From: a virus
Length of the DNA: 64,000 nt
Direction: 5' to 3' (one strand)
IMG/VR virus record: IMGVR_UViG_3300046534_001374
Coordinates: 62,001 to 126,000 of that record
Position numbers and translations under genes: made by a program
Shown: piece by piece, positions 5,859-52,409 of the stretch
How the letters are laid out: the number at the start of each line of letters is the position of its first letter
Position numbering within the stretch: position 1 is the stretch's first letter
Notes under the pieces: model-generated
Told to the model about the DNA's origin: nothing
The model's input: only the letters and a program-made list of their open reading frames with translations
Databases searched by the model: none

Positions 5859-5934
5859 AACAAGACGTGAGAGAGCGACGATCTGCCGCTAGTAAAGTTT
5901 ATGGTTATATTAGATCGCGTTTTAATTCTGCGTT
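5859..5934 (-). repeat. Shortened, inverted copy of the cassette repeat (R0)
   Basis: On the minus strand this 76-bp block matches the 49.6-52.4 kb repeat over TTAAAACGCGATCTAATATAA, TAGCGG, AGATCGTCGCTCTCTCACG and the terminal CTTGTT. It lacks about 35 bp, including one CGCGATCTAA copy and the CCGAAC/GTTCGG hairpin. Its TTTATGAACG end matches the left end of copy R1 at 49563-49572. It lies between two divergent genes, as the full copies do. Confidence 0.85.
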
Positions 5935-8862: not shown

Positions 8863-10722
8863 TTAAATTACAAATGTTGCATCGTTAGAATTGCCAGAAC
8901 CGTCTGTTAATATATTACCAACTAAACCTTCTGCTTCAAAAATAATATCGAATGCATTTTCTTCACTGCATTCTTCGACAACCTCCTCCGAGTTTCTATT
9001 ATTCTTAATATTGAAACTATAGATACCCTCGCCCGTGGTCGTATCAAACACACATATATCCATACTACAGGTAGTAACTGTTATAGACGCTATTGCAGGA
9101 CCGCCAGACTCACAGGGTATAGCGTCAGCCCACACCAACTCAACACCCTCGTTTGAACCATATAAAGACTCAGAACAAGACATATCTCTAGCATCTCTAA
9201 CGGTCGCGGATATGTCTAGTATGTCTAAATTATTATGCCTTAGGTGTTGGTTTGTATGTGTATGGCCATTTAGTATTAGGTCAACAGGTAAATCGTCAAA
9301 CCCCCAGTCCATCTCAGTGACTACCTTATTTGTTGCCGACGACATACCACTAACATATGGGTGGTGGAACATTACAACCCTATACTTTGCAGTTGAAGCC
9401 CCTAATGCCCCTATGAACCATTGATACTGAAGACTACCCACCGTATTACCATCAGGCTCAACCATACTACCATTAGACTTAACGCCACTATTAAGAACAA
9501 ACAATTCTAAACTAGCATCTTCAAACATTACGTTATAGTATCTTTTGTTATTAGGGAGATAATCGAACTTATCGGTTTGTGGGTTCGCCAAATCGAAATT
9601 CTCTATATCGTGATTGCCGATAGCCGGAAATACTTTCTCGATCTGGACATAAGGGTCGAACAAATCCCAATTTGCTTCGATGGTTTCGTAGTCCCCATTT
9701 TCGTAGTTGTTATCTCCACCGAAGAATACCCCGTCCAACTCACCCATTCTATAGAGAATATCGGCAGCATCTGTTTGTTTACTATTAACTTGACCCGCAT
9801 CTGACATGAAACCGAATACACCATAATATTCTGGTGAATCTTTTTTACAAACTTCGGTAAGGACGTTTAAGTTTTTATTGGATAAAGGTCTTTTGTATGT
9901 GTATACCTCACCCGCGCTCAACACCGTTTGTGATGGATTTATATCTTCAAACAAAACACTCTCCAGTTCTGGAGAATCGGATAAACATGTCTCACCAACT
10001 AACCCATAATACCTATCAACCCACACCGACTCACAATCATCACCCTTAAGCCAAGACTCAACACCGTTCGCTATTATATGGTCGGCTTCTTCAGGGCATG
10101 AGCCAGCAAGAGCGCCAAAACAAGAGAAATCAAGATCTACTAAATTTATAGGGTCTGAAAGATCGGGTAATTTAAATGTAAACTCACTTGTATCGAATGT
10201 TTGAGTTATGGTGTTGGTAGTAAAAAGAATAGATGGTTTGAATGTATCAAGTTGATGCTCACCAAAGTTAAAATAACTATAGTTTCTATAACAAGATCCA
10301 CATGTTACGGTTTCTTTTTCGGAGAAATTATTCTTTAAAGGTATAATACTACCCCTAAACAAATACGAATCCGAATCCGCCTCTATCGTAGAAGTCTTAG
10401 GGAAGCTGGTCCAGTAGTTAAAACAGGGTTCTGGTGATTCCTCGGCCATTATAGGAACTTCTTCAGTGAATACGGAGAGGACAGGGGTAGTCATACCCTC
10501 GGAAAATTTAGTTCTTACGTTGGTGAGAAAATTAACACTATTGAAGTTCTGGCTGAAGTCCCAAACTTCACTCAACTCTAATTGTATCCGGTCCCCGTCC
10601 CCTCCTATAAATCCTGCGGGTAGTGTTTCCATAAAACCATCAAAAAAACTCCTATTTGGGTTCAAATAACCAAACTTAATAGGGGTTTTTTTAATATATT
10701 CTGATGGCACAGGTATTAACAT
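8863..10722 (-). CDS. Tail-associated calcineurin-like metallophosphoesterase
   Basis: 619 aa. A central domain (about 310-530) carries metallophosphoesterase metal-site motifs in order: FMSDAG (first Asp), FFGGDNNYENG, IGNHD, MFHHPY and NGHTHTNQ. The spacing and the 'GGDNNY' form resemble the tartrate-resistant/purple acid phosphatase branch. N-terminal ~300 residues and ~90 C-terminal residues surround it, probably for virion attachment. Metal-dependent hydrolysis of a phosphomono- or phosphodiester is expected; a cell-surface polymer is an inferred substrate. I use ATG at 10722, with a TAATTA start signal 6 nt upstream, rather than the preceding in-frame TTG. Confidence 0.75.
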   Translation of the reverse strand: MLIPVPSEYIKKTPIKFGYLNPNRSFFDGFMETLPAGFIGGDGDRIQLELSEVWDFSQNFNSVNFLTNVRTKFSEGMTTPVLSVFTEEVPIMAEESPEPCFNYWTSFPKTSTIEADSDSYLFRGSIIPLKNNFSEKETVTCGSCYRNYSYFNFGEHQLDTFKPSILFTTNTITQTFDTSEFTFKLPDLSDPINLVDLDFSCFGALAGSCPEEADHIIANGVESWLKGDDCESVWVDRYYGLVGETCLSDSPELESVLFEDINPSQTVLSAGEVYTYKRPLSNKNLNVLTEVCKKDSPEYYGVFGFMSDAGQVNSKQTDAADILYRMGELDGVFFGGDNNYENGDYETIEANWDLFDPYVQIEKVFPAIGNHDIENFDLANPQTDKFDYLPNNKRYYNVMFEDASLELFVLNSGVKSNGSMVEPDGNTVGSLQYQWFIGALGASTAKYRVVMFHHPYVSGMSSATNKVVTEMDWGFDDLPVDLILNGHTHTNQHLRHNNLDILDISATVRDARDMSCSESLYGSNEGVELVWADAIPCESGGPAIASITVTTCSMDICVFDTTTGEGIYSFNIKNNRNSEEVVEECSEENAFDIIFEAEGLVGNILTDGSGNSNDATFVI

Positions 10723-49568: not shown

Positions 49569-49679
49569 AACGTCAAAGTGGAGGCGCGATCTAAACCGAA
49601 CTCCGTTCGGGATTAAAACGCGATCTAATATAAAACTCAACTAAGTTAGCGGTAGATCGTCGCTCTCCCACGCCTTGTT
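49569..49679 (+). repeat. Cassette repeat R1 (111 bp)
   Basis: Begins AACGTCAAAGTGGAGG and ends CACGCCTTGTT. Inside are two direct CGCGATCTAA copies, a hairpin CCGAAC-TCC-GTTCGG, AT-rich TATAAAACTCAACTAAG, and an inverted TAGATCGTCG. The two ends are imperfectly complementary. It sits between a leftward gene (49525) and a rightward gene (49731). Confidence 0.95.
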
Positions 49680-49696
49680 GTCTCTTCAAGTAAAAC

Positions 49697-49724
49697 TTGA
49701 ACTATTGATTTCGACATCTAATTA
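49697..49724 (+). promoter_or_regulatory. Promoter for first cassette gene, apparently leaderless
   Basis: TTGAAC, 16-bp spacer, TAATTA; ATG at 49731 is 6 nt after the -10 element. Confidence 0.5.
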
Positions 49725-49730
49725 AATGTG

Positions 49731-49928
49731 ATGAAAAGTAAAATCAAAGCATGGTGGGAAACATTTTGGTTCAAATATGTCCCTGCTTCTACAAGTCAAG
49801 TGTTGTCGTGGCAGAGTAAACAGCGCGAGGAGCTGAATCGTCGGGATGCGGAGCGATATTACAATCGTCAAAATATGAAGAATAATCAACAAAAGCAGAA
49901 AGACGGTCCTGAAAATCACGAAGGATAG
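49731..49928 (+). CDS. Cassette A rightward ORF, small basic protein
   Basis: 65 aa from ATG at 49731; a preceding GTG is possible. Trp-rich start (KAWWETFWFKYVP), then Arg/Asn/Gln-rich polar helix. Not recognised. It overlaps the convergent minus-strand ORF by 140 bp, so one of the two may be non-coding over that part; the clear promoter favours this one. Confidence 0.45.
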   Translation: MKSKIKAWWETFWFKYVPASTSQVLSWQSKQREELNRRDAERYYNRQNMKNNQQKQKDGPENHEG

Positions 49929-50106
49929 CCTCCAATTCACCACTAATAAAAGATTCTTCTATTACTTCTCCGTTTGGTTGAAAAGTTTTTCCACTGAATT
50001 TCTCATCATACGATTCATCTGAGAGTTTCTCCTTGATCACAATCCTAACGGATGATAAGTTGGAAAACGTGTAATCTAATTCGTGGTGTTTTGAGAATCT
50101 ATTCAT
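49789..50106 (-). CDS. Cassette A leftward ORF
   Basis: 105 aa, not recognised. Beta-like N-terminal half (ELDYTFSNLSSVRIVIKEKL), then a helix and an acidic, low-complexity end antisense to the rightward gene. It reads leftward from the degenerate repeat at 50114. Confidence 0.4.
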   Translation of the reverse strand: MNRFSKHHELDYTFSNLSSVRIVIKEKLSDESYDEKFSGKTFQPNGEVIEESFISGELEAILRDFQDRLSAFVDYSSYFDDCNIAPHPDDSAPRAVYSATTTLDL

Positions 50107-50113
50107 GATTTTC

Positions 50114-50150
50114 TAAGACAACGATGGAGCATATCTAATCAATACCAATT
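50114..50150 (+). repeat. Degenerate/truncated cassette repeat (R1b)
   Basis: AAGACAACGATGGAG...ATATCTAAT...TACC aligns loosely with the first 35 bp of R1-R5 (AACGTCAATGTGGAG...CGATCTAA...ACC); the rest is missing. The AGACAAC arm (50116-50122) is the reverse complement of the right arm of R1 (GTTGTCT, 49677-49683). It separates two convergent gene pairs as the full repeats do. Confidence 0.5.
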
Positions 50151-50155
50151 TCAAT

Positions 50156-50515
50156 ATGAATACAAAAAATAATAAACAAACAACTAATGACTCCTCCAAA
50201 ACCAACCAAGGTAGCGGTAGTGAGTTAGATACTGCGCCTTGTTCACCTCTCCGTCTTTTTGATCTGACTAAGACAACACCAGAAATGGTTGAACAAGAAT
50301 CAAATTACGAATCCCCTACTTTGAAGCAGAAACAACTAGCTCTGAAAAAAGAGGTATATCCAGATCAATCCCCGCAAGCTCTATCAAAGAGTTATCAAGA
50401 CGCTCTTGAGCTTGGTTACGTGAAACCTCAGAATCCCAATTTTGATTGGGAACCTTATAAAGATTTGGTTTGTAGATTGGTAAATTCCGAAGATCAGATT
50501 TCAGCTTCGGTATAA
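50156..50515 (+). CDS. Cassette B rightward ORF
   Basis: 119 aa, not recognised. Polar, low-complexity first 30 residues (Asn/Lys/Ser/Thr), then helical 'LKQKQLALKKEVYPDQSPQALSK...YQDALELGYV'. It overlaps the convergent minus-strand ORF by 200 bp; both have plausible composition. Confidence 0.5.
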   Translation: MNTKNNKQTTNDSSKTNQGSGSELDTAPCSPLRLFDLTKTTPEMVEQESNYESPTLKQKQLALKKEVYPDQSPQALSKSYQDALELGYVKPQNPNFDWEPYKDLVCRLVNSEDQISASV

Positions 50516-50591
50516 TATATTGAAGCTGTTTCTTCCTGTGGTGTAATGATTCTAGTATTTCTAGGCATTGTGCTTTTGTTGGATCGGGCAT
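50316..50591 (-). CDS. Cassette B leftward ORF, coiled-coil-like
   Basis: 91 aa, not recognised. Residues 5-37 form an amphipathic helix (CLEILESLHHRKKQLQYIIPK). It starts 17 bp left of R2. Large antisense overlap with the rightward ORF leaves the true extent uncertain. Confidence 0.45.
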   Translation of the reverse strand: MPDPTKAQCLEILESLHHRKKQLQYIIPKLKSDLRNLPIYKPNLYKVPNQNWDSEVSRNQAQERLDNSLIELAGIDLDIPLFSELVVSASK

Positions 50592-50607
50592 GTCCTATTT
50601 CTAGGTG

Positions 50608-50718
50608 AACGTCAATGTGGAGGCGCGATCTAAACCGAACTCCGTTCGGGATTAAAACGCGATCTAATATAAAAATAAACTAAGTTAGCGGTAGATCGTC
50701 GCTCTCTCACGTCTTGTT
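50608..50718 (+). repeat. Cassette repeat R2 (111 bp)
   Basis: Near-identical to R1, R4 and R5, with AACGTCAATGTGGAGG at the left end, CCGAAC-TCC-GTTCGG, TATAAAAATAAACTAAG, TAGATCGTCGCTCTCTCACG and final CTTGTT. The right arm GTTAGCCC (50716-50723) is the reverse complement of the left arm of R3. Confidence 0.97.
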
Positions 50719-50752
50719 AGCCCTTCAAATGGTTTTAGGGATAAATATAAGC

Positions 50753-50947
50753 ATGAGAAAACCAAACAGCCCACTAAGAACAATGGATAAGCTCCTTAAG
50801 CCATACATGCAGGAAATAAAAAATCCCGATAGCTGTGATGATCTACTAAATTATTTTGCAGATTGTATGGATGAATGGTGGAATAATCTAGATGCACGAA
50901 ATAAAGAATGCCCCCTTCCCCGAAAAGCTAATCTAGAGAAAATATAG
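50753..50947 (+). CDS. Cassette C rightward ORF
   Basis: 64 aa from ATG at 50753. Helical, with Trp/Cys/Asp-rich centre (NYFADCMDEWWNNLDARNKEC). Not recognised. Only 20 bp convergent overlap with the facing gene, so both are credible. Confidence 0.55.
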   Translation: MRKPNSPLRTMDKLLKPYMQEIKNPDSCDDLLNYFADCMDEWWNNLDARNKECPLPRKANLEKI

Positions 50948-51164
50948 TTCCGTCAGTTTCAATTCGTTTGGCAAAATCTTGTATCTTATCTTTATCTTTC
51001 AGTGAATTTAGAGCTACTTCAATCTGAGAAGCCGTTAGATTCCCTTTTTCTTGTTCAGTGATATGCCATTCTCCAAAATCTTCAGAGTTTATTTTCTTTA
51101 AGATTTCGGTTTCCAGTTCTCTTTTTGGGTTTAGTCTAAGATTATAGTTATTTGGTTCTGACAT
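50928..51164 (-). CDS. Cassette C leftward ORF
   Basis: 78 aa, not recognised. Charged helical protein: 'NPKRELETEILKKINSEDFGEWHITEQEKG...TASQIEVALNSLKDKDKI'. The second half is reminiscent of a small winged-helix, which is an unproven impression. It starts 21 bp left of R3. Confidence 0.55.
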   Translation of the reverse strand: MSEPNNYNLRLNPKRELETEILKKINSEDFGEWHITEQEKGNLTASQIEVALNSLKDKDKIQDFAKRIETDGTIFSLD

Positions 51165-51185
51165 GATTTCTTAGATTCTCGGGCT

Positions 51186-51295
51186 AACGTCAATGTGGAG
51201 GCGCGATCTAAACCGAACTCCGTTCGGAATTAAAACGCGATAATACATAAACATAACTAAGCTAGCGGTAGATCGTCGCCCTCTCACGCCTTGTT
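51186..51295 (+). repeat. Cassette repeat R3 (110 bp)
   Basis: Same architecture as R2, with a changed second box (CGCGATAATACATAAACATAA). The left arm GGGCTAAC (51181-51188) matches the right arm of R2 inverted. The right arm GTTCTGC (51293-51299) matches the left arm of R4 inverted. Confidence 0.96.
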
Positions 51296-51313
51296 CTGCA
51301 TCTGGGCCTAAGT

Positions 51314-51670
51314 ATGAATATGACCTATGAACAAGAACGAATCCTAATAAACCAAACAATCCAAGATTACCTAAATTCATGGCATCATCGCATCTGGACC
51401 CAAGCGATCACTCAACTTGACCTGTCAGTTCCAAATACCCCCTTTCGTCTTGTGAGATTTGAACTAGGGCGACTTCTTCTTGTTTTATCTCACCTTGTGT
51501 TTGTCGGTTCCCATCTAAAAGACAGAGTGCTTCAAACATTCGGTGCTGGGGAAAAATTTGACACCTTACAAGGTCCAGTGGCAACATTAGGTTTTCGAGA
51601 TCAGTTCTCAGACTATACCAAAATCTACCGACATAAGATCCACCACGAAGATCAAAATCGTTGCAAATGA
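51314..51670 (+). CDS. Cassette D rightward ORF
   Basis: 118 aa, not recognised. The first 45 residues look coding (NMTYEQERILINQTIQDYLN...WTQAITQLDL). The remainder is antisense to the facing ORF for 263 bp and has an unusual composition, so the gene may in reality be shorter or non-functional. An alternative ATG lies at 51320. Confidence 0.35.
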   Translation: MNMTYEQERILINQTIQDYLNSWHHRIWTQAITQLDLSVPNTPFRLVRFELGRLLLVLSHLVFVGSHLKDRVLQTFGAGEKFDTLQGPVATLGFRDQFSDYTKIYRHKIHHEDQNRCK

Positions 51671-51782
51671 AAATAATCCTTTCGGAGCTTTGATATACCA
51701 TTTTCGCATCAAGAAAATTACTTAGATCAAGTTCTTCGTCGGGATCACTATAATACAGTCTAAAATATGTAGGTTTACTCAT
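51408..51782 (-). CDS. Cassette D leftward ORF
   Basis: 124 aa, not recognised. The N-terminal ~95 residues read as a compact alpha/beta protein ('SKPTYFRLYYSDPDEELDLSN', 'RIIFICNDFDLRGGSYVGRFWY'). The C-terminal ~30 are polar. It begins 20 bp left of R4. Favoured over the overlapping rightward ORF. Confidence 0.5.
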   Translation of the reverse strand: MSKPTYFRLYYSDPDEELDLSNFLDAKMVYQSSERIIFICNDFDLRGGSYVGRFWYSLRTDLENLMLPLDLVRCQIFPQHRMFEALCLLDGNRQTQGEIKQEEVALVQISQDERGYLELTGQVE

Positions 51783-51802
51783 GGATTCTTAGTTTCTAGC
51801 AG

Positions 51803-51913
51803 AACGTCAATGTGGAGGCGCGATCTAAACCGAACGTAGTTCGGGATTAAAACGCGATCTAATATAAAAATAAACTAAGTTAGCGGTAGATCGTCGTCCT
51901 CCCACGTCTTGTT
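51803..51913 (+). repeat. Cassette repeat R4 (111 bp), variant hairpin loop
   Basis: Identical to R2 over most of its length, but the hairpin loop is GTA instead of TCC (CCGAAC-GTA-GTTCGG) while the stem is kept. Both outer arms are GCAGAAC/GTTCTGC, so this copy is palindromic to its tips. Right flank GTTCTGCATCTGG equals that of R3. Confidence 0.97.
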
Positions 51914-51925
51914 CTGCATCTGGAT

Positions 51926-51953
51926 TTGAAAAGTTTGATGTGATTACTAATTA
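51926..51953 (+). promoter_or_regulatory. Promoter for cassette E rightward gene, apparently leaderless
   Basis: TTGAAA, 16-bp spacer, TAATTA; ATG at 51959 is 5 nt after the -10 element. Confidence 0.55.
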
Positions 51954-51958
51954 AAGTA

Positions 51959-52108
51959 ATGAACGAACAAAAAACTTTGGTGTATGATGGTGAACTAACT
52001 CTAGACGAAGCCAGAAACAAAATCAGAAACAAAGATGGTTCAAAACTTACGGATGCGGAGTTTGTTGAATTATTCCAACCCTTTACCAAGGAAGCTTCTC
52101 GTCCCTAA
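51959..52108 (+). CDS. Cassette E rightward ORF
   Basis: 49 aa: starts MNEQKTLVYDGELTLDEARN and ends EASRP. Small charged protein with two short helices, not recognised. It has a promoter with TAATTA 5 nt before ATG and overlaps its convergent partner by 26 bp. Confidence 0.55.
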   Translation: MNEQKTLVYDGELTLDEARNKIRNKDGSKLTDAEFVELFQPFTKEASRP

Positions 52109-52271
52109 TTTCAATATTGTTTAAAATCACAAGCGGTAACCCCTCATTTGTTCGTTTAGTAATTTTAGATTGTTTCTCACACCACTCCATTTCTGATTGA
52201 TTTGGTGTTTGGAATGACCAAATATAATATTCTGGTCCTTGTGAGTTGGTTACGGTGTATTGCTGGATCAT
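52083..52271 (-). CDS. Cassette E leftward ORF
   Basis: 62 aa, not recognised. 'EYYIWSFQTPNQSEMEWCEKQSKI' (helix), then strands. It begins 27 bp left of R5 and has a good promoter whose -35 lies in R5. Confidence 0.5.
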   Translation of the reverse strand: MIQQYTVTNSQGPEYYIWSFQTPNQSEMEWCEKQSKITKRTNEGLPLVILNNIEIRDEKLPW

Positions 52272-52277
52272 AATTAT

Positions 52278-52306
52278 CTAGTAGGTAATTTATTGCAGAA
52301 CGTCAA
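52278..52306 (-). promoter_or_regulatory. Promoter partly inside R5
   Basis: Minus strand: TTGACG (from the conserved left end of the repeat), 17-bp spacer, TACTAG; ATG at 52271 follows 6 nt later. TTGACG is conserved in all five full repeats, but the other copies lack a -10 at this spacing. Confidence 0.5.
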
Positions 52307-52409
52307 TGTGGAGGCGCGATCTAAACCGAACTCCGTTCGGAATTGAAACGCGATCTGATATAAAAATAAACTAAGCTAGCGGTAGAACGTCACTCTCTCA
52401 CGTCTTATT
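52299..52409 (+). repeat. Cassette repeat R5 (111 bp), most diverged full copy
   Basis: Same layout as R2, with changes in the third box (TAGAACGTCAC for TAGATCGTCGC) and the end (CTTATT for CTTGTT). The left arm GCAGAAC (52295-52301) is the reverse complement of the right arm of R4. It is the last copy before the RNase H gene. Confidence 0.95.

What the first reader, a model, noticed from the sequence alone, without database searches (positions are those of the whole stretch)
49569..52409. Array of small-gene cassettes delimited by a 111-bp palindromic repeat
Five near-identical ~111-bp elements (49569, 50608, 51186, 51803, 52299) plus one degenerate remnant (50114) partition 2.8 kb into five cassettes. 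Each cassette holds one rightward and one leftward small ORF converging in the middle, so every repeat lies between divergent genes. The element has two direct CGCGATCTAA boxes, one inverted TAGATCG box, a CCGAAC/GTTCGG hairpin and imperfectly complementary ends. T4-type phages are known to carry mobile promoter/stem-loop (PeSL) elements in gene-swapping regions; this is a larger, distinct element acting as cassette border. It may be a recombination site, divergent regulatory region or structured RNA.
Basis: partly seen in the sequence, partly recalled or inferred. Interest (0 to 1): 0.88.

Follow-up and report, generated by a model that had tools for sequence, protein, structure and literature searches.

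The report
Integron gene-cassette array in a phage
The repeats are integron recombination sites (attC) carried by a T4-like virus that has no tyrosine-family integrase gene in its 139.6-kb record, so the virus probably relies on the integrase of its bacterial host, likely a Verrucomicrobiota bacterium, to swap small gene cassettes.

Summary
They are integron attC sites, and the region is a cluster of attC sites lacking an integrase (CALIN) in a T4-like phage.

Key evidence:
- The letters just outside the AAC...GTT repeat are complementary between the two ends of the same cassette in 7 of 7 phage cassettes, which is the integron R'/R'' signature.
- The repeat pairs into an attC-type hairpin with three extrahelical bases on one arm.
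- A covariance model built only from attC sites of other DNA finds exactly the seven full sites in 139.6 kb (E 6e-9 to 1e-5), all on the predicted strand.
- That attC type occurs in 81 of 145 genomes of one Akkermansiaceae family, 13 of 241 across the phylum and 0 of 238 Bacteroidota; some of these bacteria have integron integrases.
- Three other phages carry the same type.

The 'degenerate remnant' is a second attC type. The phage has a second, three-site array and a lone truncated site. It has no tyrosine recombinase, so shuffling probably depends on the host enzyme.

Phage CALINs are already known (Qi et al. 2023). Unusual here are the Verrucomicrobiota-type sites in several phage lineages and two convergent genes in every cassette. 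Cassette turnover was not observed: the only close relatives found are identical.

The parts
49569..49679 (-). attC site R1 (type A), AAC...GTT; canonical top strand is the minus strand
   Evidence: model R1 hit E 4.3e-8
   Evidence: R'/R'' complementary to both neighbours (by eye); 119/125 identical to B2; model R2 hit E 0.001
50608..50718 (-). attC site R2 (type A)
   Evidence: model R1 hit E 6e-9
51186..51295 (-). attC site R3 (type A)
   Evidence: model R1 hit E 5.4e-8
51803..51913 (-). attC site R4 (type A)
   Evidence: model R1 hit E 9.5e-9; ssDNA fold of the + strand z -5.1
52299..52409 (-). attC site R5 (type A), first site of the array in canonical order; AAC of R'' changed to AAT
   Evidence: model R1 hit E 9.6e-6; folds poorly
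5859..5934 (+). lone truncated attC site Y between two divergent genes
   Evidence: model R2 hit E 5.6e-12
52083..52271 (-). cassette 1 (R5 to R4) sense ORF, 62 aa
51959..52108 (+). cassette 1 antisense ORF, 49 aa, with TAATTA box before ATG
51408..51782 (-). cassette 2 (R4 to R3) sense ORF, 124 aa
51314..51670 (+). cassette 2 antisense ORF, 118 aa; weakest coding signal, overlaps the sense ORF
50928..51164 (-). cassette 3 (R3 to R2) sense ORF, 78 aa
50732..50947 (+). cassette 3 antisense ORF, about 64-72 aa
50316..50591 (-). cassette 4 (R2 to B1) sense ORF, 91 aa
50156..50515 (+). cassette 4 antisense ORF, 119 aa; starts inside attC B1
49789..50106 (-). cassette 5 (B1 to R1) sense ORF, 105 aa
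49728..49928 (+). cassette 5 antisense ORF, 65-66 aa, TAATTA upstream

Best explanation
The region is an integron cassette array without its own integrase (a CALIN) in a T4-like phage. Each repeat is an attC site whose canonical top strand is the minus strand; the + strand, as single-stranded DNA, folds into the recombinogenic hairpin (AAC/GTT boxes, unpaired spacer, stem with three extrahelical bases, variable tip). A host integron integrase acting in trans would cut between G and TT of R', excise the unit between two sites as a circle and reinsert it at another attC, in the phage or in the host's integron. Shown: site anatomy, complementarity of the two ends of every cassette, kinship to Akkermansiaceae-type attC sites, lack of a tyrosine recombinase match in the phage record, two small convergent ORFs per cassette. 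Inferred: that the host is a Verrucomicrobiota bacterium, that its integrase acts on phage DNA, and that the cassettes are exchanged accessory genes.
For: R'/R'' letters complementary for at least 4 nt beyond GTT in 7 of 7 phage cassettes (one pair read by eye); in phage plus reference arrays 36 of 44 pairs against a shuffled mean of 5.8, maximum 14. Stem with three extrahelical bases. Model R1, built from ten sites of other DNA with stem covariation, finds exactly the seven full sites in 139.6 kb, E 6e-9 to 1e-5, all on the predicted strand. Same site type in 81/145 genomes of the family, 13/241 of the phylum, 0/238 Bacteroidota; integron integrases over the cut-off in two of three Verrucomicrobiota bins. 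Same type in three other phages with terminase or tail genes. No PF00589 match in this phage or in those three. Precedent: attC sites of isolated virulent phages recombine with attI1 by IntI1 (PMC9892861).
Against: No cassette gain or loss seen: the other two records of this phage are 100% identical over the array. Cassette proteins have no known relatives, also not in 231 Verrucomicrobiota genomes, so exchange with the host is not shown. Two convergent ORFs per cassette and array-end sites at core genes are not the classic integron layout. R' boxes do not follow the strict GTTRRRY consensus. The reference sites were first found with a pattern that fixed the spacer letters, so agreement there is partly by choice.
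Confidence: 0.9

Rival explanations
1. Former attC sites now kept as divergent regulatory spacers (promoter regions for the two genes that start on either side) and no longer recombined.
For: All type-A sites and B1 lie between divergent gene starts, also the lone site Y between core genes. Phage-type TAATTA boxes precede several of these genes. Three records of the phage are identical over the array. R5 and Y are damaged.
Against: R'/R'' complementarity is intact in every cassette and stems are kept in six of seven full sites. Promoter boxes lie outside the repeat, next to the ATG, so the repeat is not needed for them.
Confidence: 0.2
2. A new phage-specific repeat unrelated to integrons (PeSL-like mobile stem-loop).
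For: Stem-loops between small genes of a T4-like phage.
Against: Per-cassette end complementarity, attC anatomy and matches of an independent attC model.
Confidence: 0.03
3. A structured RNA.
For: RNA fold of the + strand of R2 has z -2.5.
Against: No Rfam match at the gathering score in the window, chance-level hits only over the array. Each site has genes starting on both sides in opposite directions. The stem is explained by attC folding.
Confidence: 0.02

Closest known systems
CALINs in virulent phages (TJE1, P12002L, PH101; Qi et al. 2023, PMC9892861)
   Same: attC arrays with small ORFs and no integrase gene in a lytic-type phage
   Different: Here ten sites at three places in a T4-like phage, attC of a Verrucomicrobiota type, and two convergent ORFs in every cassette; no recombination assay done
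Chromosomal integrons of Akkermansiaceae-type Verrucomicrobiota (G004-G006)
   Same: Same AAC-AAGRC-GTG stem start and CAC-WTTGAC-GTT end, same layout of three extrahelical bases, same R'/R'' rule
   Different: The phage has no integrase, an own variable tip (CGATCTA stem and CCGAAC hairpin) and convergent cassettes
Class 1 integron cassettes
   Same: General attC anatomy and cassette logic (from general knowledge)
   Different: R' boxes are not GTTRRRY; not filed as class 1
PeSL elements of T4-type phages
   Same: Repeated stem-loops between small genes (recalled from memory)
   Different: PeSL are not known to have the R'/R'' rule or integron-type arms; not tested here against a PeSL set

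Membership tests
Integron attC site | AAC / GTT triplets at the two ends | tested here: met
   All sites except R5, which has AAT
Integron attC site | R' at the start of a cassette is complementary to R'' at its end | tested here: met
   7 of 7 phage cassettes
Integron attC site | Imperfect stem with extrahelical bases on one arm and an unpaired spacer | tested here: met
   97.7% of cells pair; extra bases at columns 16, 20 and 24 of the 5' arm
Integron attC site | Matches a model of attC sites from other DNA | tested here: met
   Seven hits, E 6e-9 to 1e-5, no others; type-B sites and Y are not found by this model, only by the phage's own
Integron attC site | Recombined by an integron integrase at G|TT | not testable with these tools
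   Needs an assay
CALIN | At least two attC sites close together without an integron integrase | tested here: met
   Six sites in 2.8 kb and three in 1.2 kb; no PF00589 match in the record
Complete integron | intI gene and attI site | tested here: not met
   No tyrosine recombinase match; attI not looked for
Class 1 integron cassette | R' box GTTRRRY | tested here: not met
   GTTCTGC, GTTAGCC, GTTCACC, GTTGTCT, GTTCGCT
PeSL element of T4-type phages | Short hairpin with an early promoter | not tested
   Known from memory only; attC features explain the repeat

The most novel reading that the evidence does not exclude
Phages of Verrucomicrobiota use the host's integron machinery as a shared gene-swapping platform: here each cassette is a two-gene convergent unit, often with the antisense gene behind a phage-type promoter box, and host integrase rearranges phage accessory genes during infection, when single-stranded replication DNA lets attC hairpins form.
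Probability: 0.35. Interest if true: 0.8.

Novelty: new member of a known kind. Interest (0 to 1): 0.58.

Why it matters
Integrons are studied mainly as bacterial gene banks. The same attC lineage in several different phages and in more than half of the sampled genomes of one Verrucomicrobiota family suggests that lytic-type phages draw on that bank. It gives a concrete phage and candidate hosts in which phage-host cassette exchange, and the origin of cassettes with two convergent genes, can be tested.

Tried and rejected
Rfam over the window and the array: nothing meaningful. Array DNA against phages and plasmids, one site against E. coli: no match. Relatives by exonuclease and terminase: the same phage in two other records, otherwise remote. 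Cassette proteins against Pfam, PHROGs, PADLOC and in part NCBIfam, phages and 231 Verrucomicrobiota genomes: nothing reliable. Idea that type-B sites shuffle protein N-termini: dropped, since ORF start and body lie on the same cassette and G|TT recombination would not separate them. A -35 box inside attC (TTGACG): spacing to a -10 box not regular. The four non-Verrucomicrobiota genome hits of the spacer pattern (titles Campylobacter, Polyangia, Bacteroides, Chlamydiae) are chance: no model match in those genomes at E 0.01. Type-B pattern in viral contigs: only this phage.

Full report
Observation. The unit is AAC...GTT, 110-111 bp. The record is a 139,595-bp virus contig with the window at 62001-126000; it is T4-like by terminase and tail sheath. 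Two more full copies lie on the other strand at 9.04-9.66 kb beside a second copy of the divergent type, and one truncated copy lies alone at window 5859-5934.

What the repeats are. Just outside each repeat, about four letters differ from copy to copy. The letters at the right end of one repeat are the reverse complement of those at the left end of the next: GTTGTCT/AGACAAC, GTTCACC/GGTGAAC, GTTAGCC/GGCTAAC, GTTCTGC/GCAGAAC (twice), and in the second array GTTCGCT/AGCGAAC and GTTGTCT/AGACAAC. That is the R'/R'' rule of integron cassettes, whose attC site is joined from the two ends of one cassette in the circular form (established knowledge). The 'degenerate remnant' obeys the rule with both neighbours, so it is a site of the series, not a ruin.

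Hairpin. Read on the minus strand the stem is GTG-x-GAG-x-GCG-x-CGATCTA against TAGATCG-CGC-CTC-CAC, with three unpaired bases on one arm and unpaired spacers AAGRC and WTTGAC next to AAC and GTT. In known attC sites the extra bases are on the L'' arm (my knowledge), which makes the minus strand the canonical top strand in the main array. As single-stranded DNA the + strand has a lower energy than the minus strand at all six sites folded (five type A and B1), z -5.1 for R4; R5 folds poorly on both strands. The phage's own copies are too alike to show covariation; the reference set does show it.

Independent test. A spacer-only pattern found sites in three viral contigs unrelated in sequence and in seven genome contigs, three of them Verrucomicrobiota. 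Ten sites from six of these records gave an alignment with strong stem covariation and a covariance model; none is from this phage. The model finds exactly the seven full type-A sites in the whole 139.6 kb, on the predicted strands, E 6e-9 to 1e-5, and nothing else up to E 10 in the two pieces that hold them. Caveat: the pattern fixed the spacer letters, so the agreement there is partly by choice. The stems were not chosen so, nor were the further sites the model found: in all 45, 54 and 7 in the three bacterial bins and 2, 18 and 5 in the three viral records. A model from the phage's own sites adds the lone site Y (5.6e-12) and the type-B sites B1 (0.001) and, weakly, B2 (0.06).

Where this site type lives. 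With the independent model, 81 of 145 genomes of the family of G005 (a bin titled Akkermansiaceae) have a site at E <= 1e-4, against 13 of 241 spread over its phylum and 0 of 238 in the phylum of a Bacteroides genome. Integron integrases pass the family cut-off in G005 and G006; in G004 a broken one lies on the same contig as three sites. Sites in these arrays and in the viral ones obey the R'/R'' rule: with the phage, 36 of 44 pairs match for four or more letters, against a shuffled mean of 5.8 and maximum of 14 for three or more. The three viral records have phage genes: terminase- and portal-like ORFs in the first (by eye), terminase and tape measure in the second, terminase, sheath and rIIA in the third. 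The third is a remote relative of this phage (33% in terminase, 30% in sheath). Neither this phage nor these three has a PF00589 match.

Cassettes. In canonical orientation each phage cassette has a sense ORF starting 4-31 nt after R' and an antisense ORF that converges on it. By codon usage 12 of 14 ORFs score above at least 98% of non-coding frames; the two weaker ones are in cassettes 2 and 4. Reference arrays do not show this regular pairing. No function could be assigned. Type-B sites contain the start of their antisense ORF; both copies read MNTKNNKQTTND and so on into different bodies.

How it most likely works. The phage has sites but no tyrosine recombinase, so a host integron integrase would act on folded single-stranded phage DNA formed in replication or repair, excise cassettes and insert them at other sites. 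Sites from isolated virulent phages recombine with attI1 by IntI1 in E. coli (PMC9892861). That it happens here is inferred: the other two records of the phage are identical over the array, so no turnover was seen. The rival, relic sites kept as spacers between divergent genes, is not excluded. The host is inferred from the site type alone.

Novelty. Phage CALINs are known, and Verrucomicrobiota are listed among integron-bearing phyla (PMC8618304). As far as the papers searched show, this attC lineage in several phages and the regular convergent two-gene cassettes have not been described; the library holds only part of the literature. I therefore file it as a new member of a known kind with unusual cassettes.

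Noticed in passing
whole phage genome; e.g. before window 55805, 5823, 51959: TAATTA lies 11-12 nt before the ATG of 25 of 154 ORFs, before sheath and other structural genes: it looks like the -10 box of a phage promoter giving leaderless mRNAs.
   Followed up: partly
L011 9037-10206: Second array of the same phage: sites X2, X1 (type A) and B2 (type B) on the + strand, two cassettes, same R'/R'' rule.
   Followed up: yes
L079 546-5990: Viral contig with seven attC sites of this type, a 321-aa protein whose best match is the integron integrase family (194 bits, below the cut-off of 265), a separate tyrosine recombinase, a DNA methyltransferase-like and a PAPS-reductase-like ORF: perhaps a complete integron in a temperate phage.
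   Followed up: partly
L048, L049 (viral record G002): Eighteen attC sites of this type in a 166-kb phage record, in two arrays.
   Followed up: partly
L011 about 8980-9020: Inverted repeat CGTCAGCCATAA / TTATGGCTGACG spans the start codon of the 570-aa gene beside site X2.
   Followed up: no
L011 18291-19868, L012 6951-19825: Twenty-six tRNA genes of the phage, all on the minus strand.
   Followed up: no
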